A stretch of DNA of 34,125 nt, taken from assembly GCA_013151495.1 (NCBI GenBank), contig JAADIE010000074.1, forward strand, positions 1 to 34,125, in the 5' to 3' direction. Positions 1 to 4,646 of the stretch are shown piece after piece; the first letter of the stretch is position 1; the number at the start of each line of letters is the position of its first letter. A model generated the notes under the pieces. The model was not told the DNA's origin. It did no database searches and saw only the letters and a program-made list of their open reading frames with translations. The position numbers and the translations under genes are program-made. The stretch is from Nitrospirota bacterium. Its GTDB lineage: Bacteria; Nitrospirota; Thermodesulfovibrionia; Thermodesulfovibrionales; JdFR-85.

Positions 1-310
1 CTGATATTAAAGGGAGACCAGAAGATGATCCGAATGCTTCCTTATACATTGGAAAAACAATAAAATCCTCTCCAGTTTTTTTAAATCCTCCCTGAATATA
101 AATTTCACCATAACGAGAGAGCTCTTTTGCTCTTATTGCGCTTTCTGAAGATGACACACTTCTTCTCAACATTAATAATTGTGGATTGTTTTTGAGGGCA
201 ATTTGAACTGCTTCATCTAAACTGAGACTTTTTGCATAAACATCAATAATACCGCTACTTAGAATCATAAAAACAACAAAGAATGTAACAAGCTTTCCTC
301 TATTAATCAC
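1..310 (-). CDS. TolC-family outer-membrane efflux protein, N-terminal part (runs off the window)
   Basis: The reverse frame opens at a GTG (308-310) and stays open to the window edge, giving about 103 residues. The N-terminus is a Sec signal peptide: basic start INRGK, a hydrophobic stretch, and a likely signal-peptidase site after VYA near residue 26. It is followed by SLSLDEAVQIALKNNPQL, the hallmark opening of outer-membrane efflux (OEP/TolC) proteins, in which trimers form a channel across the outer membrane for a periplasmic adaptor and an inner-membrane pump. AAGGGAG lies at good distance before the GTG. The start overlaps the last codons of the upstream TetR gene by 8 bases, so the two are probably co-transcribed and translationally coupled. 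The adaptor and pump genes would be expected further left, outside the window. Family recognition is firm; the substrate is unknown. Confidence 0.85.
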   Translation of the reverse strand, partial: MINRGKLVTFFVVFMILSSGIIDVYAKSLSLDEAVQIALKNNPQLLMLRRSVSSSESAIRAKELSRYGEIYIQGGFKKTGEDFIVFPMYKEAFGSSSGLPLIS

Positions 311-872
311 AGGTTACTCCCTTTAATATCAGAGAAATAATCTCGGGTATTTTATGCTTTATTGATACCTTACCATCAGAGAGAACATATCGCACAGAGG
401 CTGATTGAAAGATTGAGACAGTTACTATTGCCAGTGCCTTACAGTCTGTCTGACCTGATATTTTTCCACTTTCTTTAAGCCTTCTATAGAAGTCTTCAAA
501 GGCACCAACAAATACATTATAAAAATTGAATAGTCTTTCCTTTATCACAGCATTGTTAGTATAGGCAGATTCGGATAATAACAATACTCCAATACCCCTT
601 AACTTTTCGAGTAGATCTAATATTTCATTTATAGTCATCTTTAATGATCTCAAGGTTACCTTCTTCGTCCCTTTGGCAATTACTTCCTGCACATTGCTCT
701 GGAGCCTGTCTATAACTGCAATGATAATATCCTCTTTGCTTTTGAAGTGTCTGTAAATAGCAGGTTCTGTTATTCCACATGCCTCAGCAAGATTCTTTAT
801 CGTAACAGACTTCAAACCGTCTTTTACAGCAATATCTATTGCCCTGCTAACAATCTCTTCTTTCCTGCTCAT
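303..872 (-). CDS. TetR/AcrR-family transcriptional regulator
   Basis: A 189-residue protein with a TetR-type N-terminal helix-turn-helix at about residues 9-53. The recognition helix reads TEPAIYRHFKSKEDI, which is diagnostic of the family. The C-terminal ligand-binding half is not specific enough to name a ligand. GGAGG lies six bases before the ATG. It is first in an apparent operon with the overlapping TolC-type gene, so it probably represses an efflux system and itself. A palindrome overlapping its own promoter (897-920) is the likely operator. The divergent diadenylate cyclase gene shares this intergenic space and could fall under the same control, which is inference. Confidence 0.9.
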   Translation of the reverse strand: MSRKEEIVSRAIDIAVKDGLKSVTIKNLAEACGITEPAIYRHFKSKEDIIIAVIDRLQSNVQEVIAKGTKKVTLRSLKMTINEILDLLEKLRGIGVLLLSESAYTNNAVIKERLFNFYNVFVGAFEDFYRRLKESGKISGQTDCKALAIVTVSIFQSASVRYVLSDGKVSIKHKIPEIISLILKGVTCD

Positions 873-896
873 TCCTAACCTCCGTGTTGCTTTATA

Positions 897-920
897 ATGT
901 TAGTTTACACTAACTAACAT
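897..920. promoter_or_regulatory. Probable TetR operator palindrome
   Basis: ATGTTAGT (897-904) and ACTAACAT (913-920) form a perfect 8-bp inverted repeat with an 8-base spacer. A second CTAAC copy inside the spacer (910-914) also pairs with GTTAG (899-903). Sites of the TTAGTTAGTGTAAACTAA type are common for TetR-family repressors of efflux and fatty-acid genes. It covers the -10 box of the tetR promoter. Confidence 0.65.
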
Positions 921-931
921 TTGTTTGTCAA
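902..931 (-). promoter_or_regulatory. Promoter of the tetR-tolC operon
   Basis: On the minus strand there is TTGACA (926-931), an 18-base spacer, and TAAACT (902-907). The -10 box lies inside the palindromic operator, which fits autorepression. Confidence 0.55.
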
Positions 932-959: not shown

Positions 960-1853
960 ATGAAATCACAGAGAAGTATAATTATAGAAAATGCACTCAG
1001 GCTCTTAAAAGAAACCAATAGTAATTGTCTATTCCTCTTTCTTAATACCCTACGCGATTGCAACTGGTTTTTAAGGTTAGAATTGTCGGCTAAGACTAAT
1101 ATTGTGGTTATTGTTCCAAAACATTTAAACATTAATGATGCCCCTTTCAGGTCATCTGGAATAAAAATTATAAAAAGCTGGGCTGGAAATCAGACGAGAT
1201 TTTCAAGGATCAAATATGCCTTTTTGCAGGGAGTGCTTCACGGCATTATAAATAGCGATAGCAAGGTTGTTTGTGTATTGGGTCCCTGGGGAAAGAGCCA
1301 TCTTGATACAATAACCATACATGATCTCGGTTTATCATGGAGTGAAGAGTTTCCTTTTGATGTCCGGTCATTAATTAATAACAGGGCATTTAATGTTTTG
1401 ATGGCGGTAGTAGATATTGCACTTGATATTGGCGCCTTGGGGCGTGAAGGCAAACCTGTGGGAACGACCTTTGTAGTAGGAGATACCAAAAATGTTATGG
1501 CCTATTCACATCAAGCTGTTTTTAATCCTTTCAAAGGATATCCAAAAAAGGAACGTCTTATAAACCGCCCCGAAGTTGTGGAAAGTATAAAAGAGCTTGC
1601 CAAGCTTGATGGCGCAATAATAATTTCAGAAGATGGTGTGGTCGAGGCGGCAGGTAGACATCTTGACACTTCACGAGCAACTACAAGATACTTAAGGGGG
1701 CTTGGAGCCAGACACCGGGCTGCAGCTGGTATAACTTTTAAAACAGAGGCAATTGCTGTGGTAGTTTCAGAAAGCACTGGTAGGGTAACCATCTTTGAGA
1801 GAGGAAGAATCGTTGCAACCCTTGAGCCTGTCATTAGTAGACGACTTGTATAA
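960..1853 (+). CDS. Diadenylate cyclase (DAC/DisA_N domain), DacZ-like architecture
   Basis: A 297-residue protein that should condense two ATP into cyclic di-AMP. The C-terminal half is a DAC domain: KLDGAIIISEDG carries the catalytic DGA motif at about 217-219, and GARHRAAAGIT carries the RHR motif at about 251-253. The N-terminal ~110 residues lack the transmembrane helices of CdaA and the helix-hairpin-helix DNA-binding domain of DisA. They look like a soluble alpha/beta domain (NIVVIVPKHL, then IKIIKSW), resembling the arrangement of archaeal DacZ, though that comparison is from memory. An upstream TTG at 921 is also in frame, but the ATG at 960 is preferred because 921 lies in the regulatory region. 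There is no ribosome-binding site. It is divergent from tetR-tolC and has no obvious operon partner. Confidence 0.88.
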   Translation: MKSQRSIIIENALRLLKETNSNCLFLFLNTLRDCNWFLRLELSAKTNIVVIVPKHLNINDAPFRSSGIKIIKSWAGNQTRFSRIKYAFLQGVLHGIINSDSKVVCVLGPWGKSHLDTITIHDLGLSWSEEFPFDVRSLINNRAFNVLMAVVDIALDIGALGREGKPVGTTFVVGDTKNVMAYSHQAVFNPFKGYPKKERLINRPEVVESIKELAKLDGAIIISEDGVVEAAGRHLDTSRATTRYLRGLGARHRAAAGITFKTEAIAVVVSESTGRVTIFERGRIVATLEPVISRRLV

Positions 1854-2106: not shown

Positions 2107-2475
2107 ATGAAGAAAAGTGATAATGATTATATCTGTAAGGTAGATTTCTTTGACCCGAAAAGGGTTTCTACTGTTAAGAAAAGGCTTAAACCCGAACGAA
2201 CCATGCAACTACTTGCAGAAACCTTCAAGGTACTGGGTGATACAACAAGGGTGAAAATACTTTTTGCACTATCACAGCAGGAACTCTGTGTTTGTGATCT
2301 GGCCAAACTTTTTGATATATCAAAGTCGGCAGTTTCTCATCAACTCAGGCTTCTTAGAAATATGAGACTTGTTAAGTACCGTAAGGATGGTAAGATGGTT
2401 TACTACAGTCTTGATGACGATCATATAAAAAACCTCTTTGATGAATGCCTGAGGCATGTGGAGGAGATAGAATGA
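2107..2475 (+). CDS. ArsR/SmtB-family metal sensor (CadC/SmtB type)
   Basis: A 122-residue winged-helix repressor expected to leave DNA on binding Zn(II), Cd(II) or Pb(II). The HTH region is DLAKLFDISKSAVSHQLRLL (residues 64-83). Both classical metal sites are visible. The alpha-3N site has C10 near the N-terminus plus ELCVCDL (C61, C63), as in CadC. The alpha-5 site has D104, H106, H117 and E120, the spacing and even the numbering of SmtB. The ATG at 2107 is preferred over the in-frame TTG at 2092 because GAGGG lies eight bases before it. The stop overlaps the start of the next gene (ATGA, 2472-2475), so sensor and ATPase are translationally coupled and the ATPase is its target. Confidence 0.92.
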   Translation: MKKSDNDYICKVDFFDPKRVSTVKKRLKPERTMQLLAETFKVLGDTTRVKILFALSQQELCVCDLAKLFDISKSAVSHQLRLLRNMRLVKYRKDGKMVYYSLDDDHIKNLFDECLRHVEEIE

Positions 2476-4646
2476 CCAGGAAATACACCCTTGATGGCCT
2501 TACCTGAGCAACCTGTGCATCAAAGATCCAGGCGGCTCTTAGGGAACTACCCGACATAAAGGCTGAGCTTAATTTTGCTACAGCCACTCTTTATATAGAG
2601 GATTCTGATAGCACCTCTGAACAGAAGGTCTTCGAGATTATTAACTCTATCGAGCCTGCTGTTAAAATAATTCCGCAAGATGAAGTCCAGGATGATCATG
2701 ACCACGGAAACGGTTCCGTGATACTAAAAAAGATCTCTTATGCAGGTGCCTTTTTTGCAATTGGTCTTTTAACCGATTTTTACTTTTTAAAGAATGCAGA
2801 CAAGTCCAGTCCTTTTAACATCTCGTTCTGGTATATATTTGTGCCATATTTTATAGCATACATTATTTCTGGCTACGACATTCTTGGGAAGGCTTTAAAA
2901 GGACTTCGTAAGGGAGACCTTTTTAATGAAAACTTTCTTATGAGTATAGCAACTCTTGGAGCCTTTGCTATTGGTGAGTTTCCAGAGGCTGTTGGAGTGA
3001 TGCTCTTTTTTAAGGTAGGCGAGTACTTTGAAGACAGAGCTGTAAACCACTCAAGGAAATCAATAAAGAAACTTCTTAAAATAAAGGCAGAATTTGCCAA
3101 TCTCTGGGTAGATGGTAAAACAAAACAGGTCCCCCCAGAGGAAGTAAAGGTAGACGATGTTATTGTTGTCAGGCCAGGTGAAAGAATTCCTCTTGATGGA
3201 ATAGTAATTCAAGGGCAATCCAATGTCGATACCTCTGCCTTAACAGGTGAATCTGTACCTCGAGCTTTAAGCCCTGGCGATGAGGCCCTATCAGGTATGG
3301 TTAACCTTAATGCTATGATACTATTAAAAGTAACCCGTCCGTTTGAACAATCAACTGTAAGCAAGATACTTCAGCTTGTTGAGAAGGCTGCATCCCAGAA
3401 GGCACCAACTGAAAAGTTTATCAGTAAGTTTTCAAGATACTACACCCCTTCGGTTGTATTTGCCGCAGTACTTATTGCCATATTGCCTCCTATTTTTTAT
3501 CAGTCCGGTATTATGCAATCTCTCTTTACTCACCAAGAGACATGGTCTGAATGGGTTTACAGATCTCTTGTGTTCCTGGTTATAGCCTGCCCGTGTGCAC
3601 TTGTGCTTTCGATACCGGTTGGTTTTTTTGGTGGCATTGGTGCATCTGCCAAAAAGGGAGTCCTTTTTAAAGGTTCTAATTATCTTGAGGCCTTCAGAAG
3701 TATCCATACCATGGTATTCGACAAAACAGGCACCCTTACTGAAGGAGTCTTCAAGGTGGTCGAGGTTAATCCTGCAAATGGTTTCTCAAGGGATGAGCTT
3801 CTCAGGTTTGCTGCACTGGCAGAAAGCCATTCCACCCACCCCATTGCCCGTTCCATATCAGAGGCCTATGGGAAGAAAATAGAAGAAAGTAGCATTGAAC
3901 ATTATGAGGAAATACCGGCTCATGGTGTAAAAGTGGTTGCCGAGGGAAAAGAAATACTTGCAGGTAACGATAGAATCCTGCATCTTTCGGACAAGGCTAT
4001 TGAACATAAAAGCTGTGTTACGGCTGGCACGGTAGTGCATGTAGCGGTGGACAGGACCTATGCAGGTTATATCGTGCTTGCAGACAAAATTCGTGACGAT
4101 GCAAAACAAACCATTCAGAAGCTGAAATCAGAGGGAATAAAAAAGATAGTAATGCTTACAGGAGATGACAAGGAGGCTGCTGAACGAGTAGCCAGGGAAC
4201 TTTCCCTGGATCAATACCACGCAGAGTTGTTACCCCAGCAAAAGATAGAGATTGTTCAGCAGCTTGAAAAAGCCCTCGACAGAAAAAAAGAAAAGATTGC
4301 CTTTGTTGGTGATGGAATAAATGACGCCCCTGTGCTTGTAGCCTCCGACATTGGCATTGCAATGGGTGGGCTTGGTTCAGATATGGCTGTTGAGGCAGCA
4401 GATGTGGTATTGATGAAGGATCGTCTTACCGGGCTACTTGATGCCCTTTATATTTCAAGAAGAACTAGAAATATTGTATTTGGCAATATTTTAATGGTCT
4501 TTCTGGTGAAGGCCTTCTTCCTTGTCTCAGGAGCACTTGGTTTTGCTACCATGTGGGAGGCTGTTTTTGCTGATGTAGGAGTTGCCATCTTTGCAGTATT
4601 AAACTCTACACGTATACTAAAGGATAAAAAGCATTTAAAACTGTAG
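2472..4646 (+). CDS. Heavy-metal (Zn/Cd/Pb) P1B-type ATPase with in-frame TGA, probable selenoprotein
   Basis: With TGA at 2505-2507 read as selenocysteine the protein is 724 residues. It has an N-terminal HMA domain (1-70), an acidic HDH linker (~74-78), and a full P1B ATPase. Visible motifs are TGES in the actuator domain, the CPC metal site (C373, C375), phosphorylation motif DKTGT at 417, and GDGINDA near 613. Late helices carry LVKAFF and ADVGVAIFAVLNS, the K and D pattern of Zn/Cd/Pb exporters. Residue 12 replaces the first Cys of the HMA CxxC motif: DGLT-Sec-ATCASKIQ. GGAGGAG sits five bases before the ATG, and the gene is coupled to the sensor. A GTG at 2718 would give a 642-residue protein without HMA but has no good ribosome-binding site. 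Alternatives are a nonsense mutation or a base error. The 3' end overlaps the convergent sirtuin gene by 12 bases. Confidence 0.8.
2506..2538 (+). promoter_or_regulatory. Candidate bacterial SECIS hairpin at the TGA
   Basis: Immediately at the TGA, GAGC (2506-2509) can pair with GCTC (2535-2538). After a 2x2 internal loop, CCTG (2512-2515) pairs with CAGG (2529-2532). ATC (2519-2521) can further pair with GAT (2525-2527), leaving an AAA loop. Alternatively the 13-base apical loop starts TG. Position just after the stop codon within the coding region fits bacterial SECIS elements. The hairpin is modest, was folded by eye, and is not proof. Confidence 0.45.

What the first reader, a model, noticed from the sequence alone, without database searches (positions are those of the whole stretch)
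960..1853. DacZ-like diadenylate cyclase outside the usual bacterial architectures
The DAC motifs DGA and RHR are intact, but the N-terminus is neither membrane-bound (CdaA) nor part of DisA with a DNA-binding domain. The combination resembles archaeal DacZ. c-di-AMP signalling in this lineage is little described, and the gene sits back to back with an efflux regulator.
Basis: partly seen in the sequence, partly recalled or inferred. Interest (0 to 1): 0.55.

Follow-up and report, generated by a model that had tools for sequence, protein, structure and literature searches.

The report
Bacterial DacZ-type c-di-AMP synthase
This gene encodes a soluble enzyme predicted to make the signal molecule c-di-AMP, built like the archaeal DacZ/CdaZ enzymes with a sensor-like domain shaped like the regulatory end of pyruvate kinase, and it sits as a second such enzyme in scattered bacteria.

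Summary
Window 960-1853 (+) encodes 297 residues with a diadenylate cyclase (DAC) domain whose DGA (217-219) and RHR (251-253) motifs are invariant in 38 aligned full-length sequences. The N-terminus is neither a CdaA membrane domain nor part of a DisA. Modelled with the whole protein or alone, it matches the C-terminal allosteric domain of pyruvate kinase (alone: Z 14.1, 2.4 A, 122 residues). A tree puts the DAC domain with archaeal DacZ, apart from CdaA, CdaS and DisA (100/100). It is not a new kind: Braun et al. 2019 (PMC6741144) reported bacterial homologues in this branch with this N-terminal fold. Distinctive is a bacterial subfamily (Nitrospirota, Desulfobulbaceae) in which half of the N-domain is as conserved as the catalytic domain: 23 of 62 columns invariant, against 2 of 66 in the other half. 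That half lies where pyruvate kinases hold their effector pocket, suggesting a c-di-AMP synthase gated by an unknown ligand. The gene is patchy: 14 of 295 genomes of the phylum hold a full-length copy, each with a second DAC match. The divergent efflux regulator is real but not conserved. Synthesis and ligand are untested.

The parts
960..1853 (+). dacZ-like gene: soluble diadenylate cyclase, 297 aa
960..1343 (+). N-terminal domain, residues 1-128, fold of the pyruvate kinase C-terminal (allosteric) domain
   Evidence: AlphaFold2 models; VIA-align Z 12.5 within the whole protein and Z 14.1 alone; Pfam DacZ_P below cut-off, matched at E<=0.01 by 32 of 38 sequences
1179..1205 (+). residues 74-82 WAGNQTRFS, just before and at the start of the last long helix of the N-domain; W74, G76, N77, Q78, R80, F81, S82 invariant; absent from the two archaeal and three other bacterial N-domains compared
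1281..1310 (+). residues 108-117 GPWGKSHLDT, loop between the last two strands, at the topological place of the pyruvate kinase effector loop; G108, P109, H114, L115, D116, T117 invariant
   Evidence: effector-loop position from PMC10338316
1335..1361 (+). residues 126-134 SWSEEFPFD, conserved link between N-domain and DAC domain
1386..1823 (+). DAC catalytic domain, residues about 143-288
1440..1556 (+). residues 161-199 GREGKPVG..GD..NPFKGYP, stretch shared with DacZ proteins; holds about 8 columns before NPF that the CdaA, CdaS and DisA rows shown lack
   Evidence: alignment
1608..1616 (+). DGA motif (217-219)
1710..1718 (+). RHR motif (251-253)
303..872 (-). divergent TetR-family regulator; neighbour, not a conserved part
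896..921 (.). perfect 10-bp inverted repeat AATGTTAGTT-N6-AACTAACATT, likely operator of the TetR regulator; only site in the genome at up to 3 mismatches
   Evidence: overlaps a minus-strand promoter-like site (consensus match only)

Best explanation
It is a soluble bacterial diadenylate cyclase of the DacZ/CdaZ class. Two DAC domains meet and join two ATP into c-di-AMP (established for the DAC fold; inferred here from intact motifs). The N-terminal domain has the fold of the allosteric C-domain of pyruvate kinase. It most likely binds a small ligand, perhaps AMP or another phosphorylated metabolite, in a pocket made by the conserved stretch 74-82 and loop 108-117, and passes the state to the DAC domain through the conserved link 126-134. 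The enzyme would thus supply c-di-AMP in response to an internal metabolic signal, beside the membrane-bound CdaA of the same genome. Shown by computation: fold, class, conservation, co-occurrence. Inferred: catalysis, ligand, direction of regulation.
For: DAC family match and invariant motifs. DacZ-class branch 100/100 in a 60-row tree; DAC identity 32-35% to two archaeal DacZs and 42-48% to five other DacZ-like proteins of the phylum, against 19-28% to the CdaA, CdaS, cyanobacterial, CdaA-YbbR and DisA rows. tblastn of the DAC part against 72,556 plasmid records at E<=10 gave two Haladaptatus dacZ genes and one unannotated hit at E 9, although the CdaA query finds DACs in 43 records there. 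N-domain = pyruvate kinase C-domain; the best rows are M. tuberculosis pyruvate kinase, one of them with the activator AMP (5ws9). Residues 67-128 are as conserved as the DAC domain (mean share of the commonest residue per column 80% against 79%), residues 1-66 far less (52%). The genome holds the rest of a c-di-AMP system: CdaA beside a YbbR-like ORF (named by eye), a 7TM-HD phosphodiesterase of PgpH type, a 333-aa DHH-DHHA1 protein, five TrkA_C domain matches.
Against: No activity was tested. Sequence comparison alone does not link the N-domain to pyruvate kinase: hhalign against eight PK C-domains of the phylum gave probability 0.8%, E 0.073, and the N-domain profile found no pyruvate kinase in the PDB at E<=10. 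The loop after the first strand (about residues 29-34), the place of phosphate-binding threonines in S. pneumoniae pyruvate kinase, is variable, so FBP-type binding is unlikely. The curated DacZ cut-offs are not reached. The branch that sets the DacZ class apart is itself long (3.52) and the archaeal side has only two near-identical rows.
Confidence: 0.72

Rival explanations
1. It is a DacZ-class cyclase whose N-domain is a dimerisation or scaffold domain without a ligand; the conserved half is the contact with the DAC domain or with a partner protein.
For: Pyruvate kinase C-domains also make subunit contacts (C-C interface; PMC4448766, passages). The link 126-134 beside the DAC domain is itself conserved.
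Against: The invariant residues sit in two loop regions at strand and helix ends, where pyruvate kinases hold effector residues, and include W, N, Q, R, H and D side chains common in binding sites. Burial could not be checked.
Confidence: 0.22
2. The protein is not an active diadenylate cyclase: a degenerate second copy, with CdaA doing all synthesis.
For: Patchy distribution, 14 of 295 genomes with a full-length copy, each with a second DAC match; some relatives (such as L032, L033, L036, L037) have SQS in place of SES at 270-272.
Against: DGA and RHR invariant in 38 of 38; 49 of 155 columns of residues 143-297 invariant. A degenerate copy would not keep this.
Confidence: 0.05
3. It makes a different cyclic or linear nucleotide on the DAC fold.
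For: Nothing direct; specificity is only inferred from motifs.
Against: The class has members with reported c-di-AMP synthesis (H. volcanii DacZ, M. jannaschii CdaZ; PMC6741144, passages), and the same genome has phosphodiesterases of the c-di-AMP types.
Confidence: 0.03
4. It belongs functionally to the divergent TetR/efflux locus, being switched on by the same regulator.
For: 87-bp shared intergenic region with a perfect palindrome at 896-921.
Against: The BLAST cluster of this TetR occurs beside the gene only in the window and its own second copy L047, among 53 entries compared. The palindrome overlaps the promoter-like site of the TetR gene itself.
Confidence: 0.12

Closest known systems
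DacZ (Haloferax volcanii) and the archaeal DacZ class
   Same: Two-domain layout: N-domain of PK C-terminal fold (for archaea as reported in PMC6741144), C-terminal DAC with the longer stretch before NPF; one branch in the tree with two Haladaptatus DacZs.
   Different: Only 32-35% DAC identity to the two Haladaptatus DacZs; N-domain signatures WSGNQTRFS and GPWGxxHLDT absent there; haloarchaeal dacZ lies in an operon with mscS2 (PMC6741144), which is not seen in the window; here it accompanies a CdaA. The H. volcanii sequence itself was not at hand.
CdaZ/DacY (Methanocaldococcus jannaschii)
   Same: N-terminal PK C-type domain plus DAC, as described in PMC6741144.
   Different: No sequence of it was at hand; not compared directly.
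Other DacZ-like proteins of the same phylum (G183, G140, G111; short forms G178, G122)
   Same: DAC of the same class, 42-48% identical; for G183, G140, G111 an alignable N-domain with LD[TS] after the fourth strand.
   Different: Lack WSGNQTRFS and the SWSEEFPFD link; the G178 and G122 frames lack most of the N-domain.
CdaA/DacA
   Same: DAC fold and motifs.
   Different: No transmembrane N-terminus in the window protein; DAC identity to the CdaA rows 19-28%.
DisA
   Same: DAC fold and motifs.
   Different: The DAC domain is C-terminal here; no linker or DNA-binding part; DisA model matched at E<=1e-25 in 0 of 295 genomes of the phylum.

Membership tests
DAC domain superfamily (PF02457) | curated Pfam score and DGA/RHR motifs | tested here: met
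   84.2 bits against 27; motifs invariant in 38 of 38
DacZ/CdaZ class | DAC domain groups with archaeal DacZ apart from CdaA, CdaS, DisA | tested here: met
   45-row branch 100/100; DisA represented by one long-branched sequence, archaea by two Haladaptatus rows
DacZ/CdaZ class | N-terminal domain with the fold of the pyruvate kinase C-terminal domain | tested here: met
   Z 14.1, rmsd 2.4, 122 aligned of 135; Z 12.5 in the whole protein; predicted models, not solved structures
DacZ_P (PF21755) | curated Pfam score of the sensor domain | tested here: not met
   23.1 bits against 27.4, though covering 2-118 of 125 model positions, E 6.2e-5; 32 of 38 sequences match at E<=0.01
haloarchaeal DacZ equivalog (NF041371) | curated NCBIfam score | tested here: not met
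   124.9 bits against 430; so it is not the haloarchaeal orthologue, only of its class
DacZ/CdaZ class | synthesis of c-di-AMP | not testable with these tools
   needs a bench assay
CdaA | N-terminal transmembrane domain CdaA_N and TIGR00159 score | tested here: not met
   no CdaA_N match; 48.7 bits against 188.8
DisA | PRK13482 score; DAC followed by linker and DNA-binding domain | tested here: not met
   37.3 bits against 201; the protein ends 14 residues after the Pfam DAC match
metabolite-gated allosteric domain (pyruvate kinase-like) | ligand binding at the effector site | not testable with these tools
   only position and conservation of the loops

The most novel reading that the evidence does not exclude
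A bacterial subfamily of DacZ has turned the pyruvate kinase allosteric domain into a dedicated, strictly conserved sensor (WSGNQTRFS plus GPWGxxHLDT pocket) that ties c-di-AMP production to one central metabolite, giving these bacteria a second, soluble, metabolism-driven input to c-di-AMP beside membrane-bound CdaA.
Probability: 0.35. Interest if true: 0.62.

Novelty: new member of a known kind. Interest (0 to 1): 0.4.

Why it matters
What the pyruvate-kinase-like domain of DacZ/CdaZ enzymes senses is open: PMC6741144 only suggests a regulatory role. In the two archaeal and three other bacterial sequences compared here the N-domain shares few residues, which hides the pocket. This subfamily keeps a sharply defined set of invariant residues at the place of the pyruvate kinase effector site, so ligand screens and point mutants can be chosen at once. 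It also places the class, with a full c-di-AMP toolkit around it, in Nitrospirota and Desulfobulbaceae.

Tried and rejected
Conserved operon: ORFs of at least 70 aa from 54 entries (41 relatives, 12 loci, the window) were clustered by BLAST; the DAC cluster covers 53 of them and the largest neighbour cluster 7. Several entries are the same locus twice (L047 is the window itself), so even 7 is an over-count. No partner gene emerged. Sequence link of the N-domain to pyruvate kinase or to stand-alone PK_C proteins (AF0103/MTH1675 kin, one in this genome): hhalign not significant. c-di-AMP riboswitch RF00379: none in this genome. DisA in the phylum: 0 of 295 at E<=1e-25. Phage records: no match. 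An archaeal DacZ was not modelled.

Rows dropped before alignment A1: of 42 loci, L044 (a CdaA-like match), L005 and L041 (reading frame ends early), L042 and L043 (cut at contig ends). Conservation counts rest on the remaining 37 plus the window. Of the 41 orthologue loci I gave the genomes of 19 to (the 20th handle was that of L044). Matches beyond a length limit are not printed, so fragments may be missed. For only part of the 14 orthologue genomes is the second DAC match itself printed there; for the rest only the count of two was shown. 'CdaA-type' is judged by score; three of those CdaAs were read (L086, L087, L088).

While thinking I laid residues 83-117 beside human PKM2 as recalled from memory; this is not used as evidence. 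I rely on topology, on the aligned ranges and on the two papers.

Full report
What is there. The ORF at 960-1853 (+) begins with ATG and encodes 297 residues. Pfam finds DAC (PF02457) at residues 161-283, E 6.9e-24, and, below its cut-off, DacZ_P at 5-124 (23.1 bits against 27.4). NCBIfam's best match is DacZ, NF041371, 124.9 bits (cut-off 430), ahead of CdaA 48.7 and DisA 37.3. The same genome holds one other DAC match, an ordinary CdaA beside an ORF that looks like YbbR.

Relatives. A scan of genome contigs returned 42 loci. One, L044, is only a distant, CdaA-like match. By record title the other 41 are 26 Nitrospirota, 10 Desulfobulbaceae or other delta-type, 3 labelled Proteobacteria or Pseudomonadota, 1 Spirochaetes and 1 unplaced (BMS3Abin06). 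Nearly all are metagenome bins, so single odd placements may be binning errors. Thirty-seven of them plus the window gave a full-length alignment; identity to the window is 60-79%. The motifs DGA and RHR are invariant.

Distribution. In 295 genomes of the window's phylum (names not given; Nitrospirota inferred from the nearest named relatives) the profile found 14 genomes with a full-length copy, fragments in two more (G156, residues 188-297 at a contig start; G130, residues 267-297 in a 76-aa frame), and five with more distant DacZ-like proteins (G183, G140, G111, G178, G122). The printed list is cut, so further fragments may exist. Each of the 14 has two DAC matches. The one other listed genome of the same genus (G251) has a single weak match of the CdaA kind. 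Of 19 orthologue-bearing genomes searched directly with PF02457, 18 also have a strong CdaA-type match (E 3.5e-40 or better), and one (G304, the genome of L026) only this protein; some genomes may occur in both sets. DisA was found in 0 of 295 at E<=1e-25. So the protein is a patchy, usually second, diadenylate cyclase.

Class. A careful tree of 60 DAC domains (158 columns) puts the 38 window-family rows, five other proteins of the phylum and two Haladaptatus DacZs on one side of a 100/100 branch, with CdaA, CdaS, a cyanobacterial DAC, CdaA-YbbR fusions and DisA on the other. That branch is long (3.52), the archaeal side has two very similar rows, and DisA is one long-branched sequence; the joins the program warns of do not touch this branch. 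Identities agree: 32-35% to the archaeal DacZs, 42-48% to the five others, 19-28% to the rows of all other classes. The DacZ proteins also share a stretch (window residues 161-199, GREG..NPFKGYP) with about 8 columns before NPF that the CdaA, CdaS and DisA rows shown lack. With the DAC part as query, tblastn of the plasmid collection at E<=10 gave two Haladaptatus dacZ genes and one unannotated chance-level hit (E 9), while the CdaA query matched 43 records.

N-terminal domain. AlphaFold2 gives mean pLDDT 80.2 for the whole protein and 84.7 for residues 1-135 alone. In the whole model, residues 1-128 match pyruvate kinase C-domains (7z4q, Z 12.5, rmsd 2.5, 118 aligned) and 134-291 match DAC domains. 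Alone, all 50 rows shown by Foldseek and all 50 by VIA-align are pyruvate kinases; the best is M. tuberculosis pyruvate kinase, Z 14.1, rmsd 2.4, 122 aligned, 14% identity. Comparison by sequence was not significant, so the link rests on fold. PMC6741144 (section 3.1 read, other passages seen) reports the same fold for archaeal DacZ, DacY/CdaZ and close bacterial homologues. The class and its bacterial presence are therefore known; whether the window subfamily is among those homologues I could not see.

What is distinctive. Conservation splits the N-domain: 2 of 66 columns invariant in residues 1-66, but 23 of 62 in 67-128, where the mean share of the commonest residue (80%) equals that of residues 143-297 (79%). 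The invariant residues fall mainly in W74-S82, before and at the start of the last helix, and G108-T117, the loop between the last two strands. In pyruvate kinases the effector loop lies just before the last strand and, in human M2, Trp482 and Arg489 of a preceding helix contact the effector's phosphate (PMC10338316, passages). The aligned ranges (model 1-124 on M2 405-531; model 1-123 on the S. pneumoniae enzyme 379-500) put Trp482 and Arg489 near model residues 75-85 and the pneumococcal effector loop 482-492 near 104-115; this is a reckoning from range ends, not a residue alignment. The place of the pneumococcal phosphate-binding threonines (407-412), near model 29-34, is variable here. A ligand other than FBP, or an interface, are the two readings; I favour a ligand. 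The three G183-type and two archaeal proteins lack these signatures apart from LD[TS] or ADS at the end of the loop.

Surroundings. No conserved neighbours were found. Here the gene is divergent from a TetR gene that precedes an outer-membrane efflux protein gene cut by the contig end. A perfect 26-bp palindrome at 896-921 is unique in the genome at up to three mismatches and overlaps the promoter-like site of the TetR gene (a consensus match; the scan found 9 sites where shuffles give 4.8). It is probably that regulator's own operator; an effect on dacZ is possible and untested.

A working c-di-AMP system is likely. The genome holds CdaA, a PgpH-type 7TM-HD protein next to a PhoH-like ORF, a 333-aa DHH-DHHA1 protein next to a TruB-like ORF, and five TrkA_C domain matches (PhoH and TruB named from the sequences by eye). 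No c-di-AMP riboswitch was found.

Literature searched: terms DacZ, CdaZ, Nitrospira (13), Nitrospirae (89), Desulfo (14), Deltaproteobacteria (67), DacZ with bacterial homolog (90). Going by titles and abstract starts of these listings, and by what I opened, only PMC6741144 dealt with this class at length; PMC10117811 (one passage) lists CdaZ as one of five DAC types. The reviews by Corrigan and Gruendling and by Commichau were not opened and are known only as cited there.

Noticed in passing
window 2472-4646 (+): The metal-transport P-type ATPase listed from a GTG at 2718 is in frame with an upstream HMA domain through a single TGA at residue 12 (GLT-U-ATCA), at the first cysteine place of the CxxC metal site. 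The RNA after the TGA folds well (z -2.75) and the genome has a tRNA-Sec with anticodon TCA: a likely selenocysteine-containing metal ATPase. No SECIS model was run.
   Followed up: partly
window 896-921: Unique perfect palindrome between the TetR gene and the dacZ-like gene.
   Followed up: partly
L081 (G311), L082 (G301), L083 (G307): CdaA-like frames of 421-490 aa that continue into what looks like YbbR/CdaR repeats, possible CdaA-CdaR fusions, in a deltaproteobacterial, a Nitrospiraceae and a 'Proteobacteria' bin (domain named by eye).
   Followed up: no
L084 (G310), L085 (G307): Very divergent DAC-domain frames of 499 and 515 aa with DGS or DGA and RGARYNSA in place of RHR, further DAC matches in genomes that also carry the window-type enzyme.
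   Followed up: no
L068 (G183:C1): A genome of the phylum whose only match with the A1 profile is a DacZ-like protein, so DacZ may stand alone there.
   Followed up: no
L010 and L012; G308:C47 and G308:C2: Two different window-type cyclase genes in contigs of one metagenome bin (CALZGI01); G308 (genome of L034) also shows two DAC matches in the score range of this type. Possible duplications.
   Followed up: no
G000:C1:8291-8728 (L103): Stand-alone PK_C protein related to AF0103 and MTH1675 (PDB 1vp8, 1t57), described there only as hypothetical or conserved proteins.
   Followed up: no
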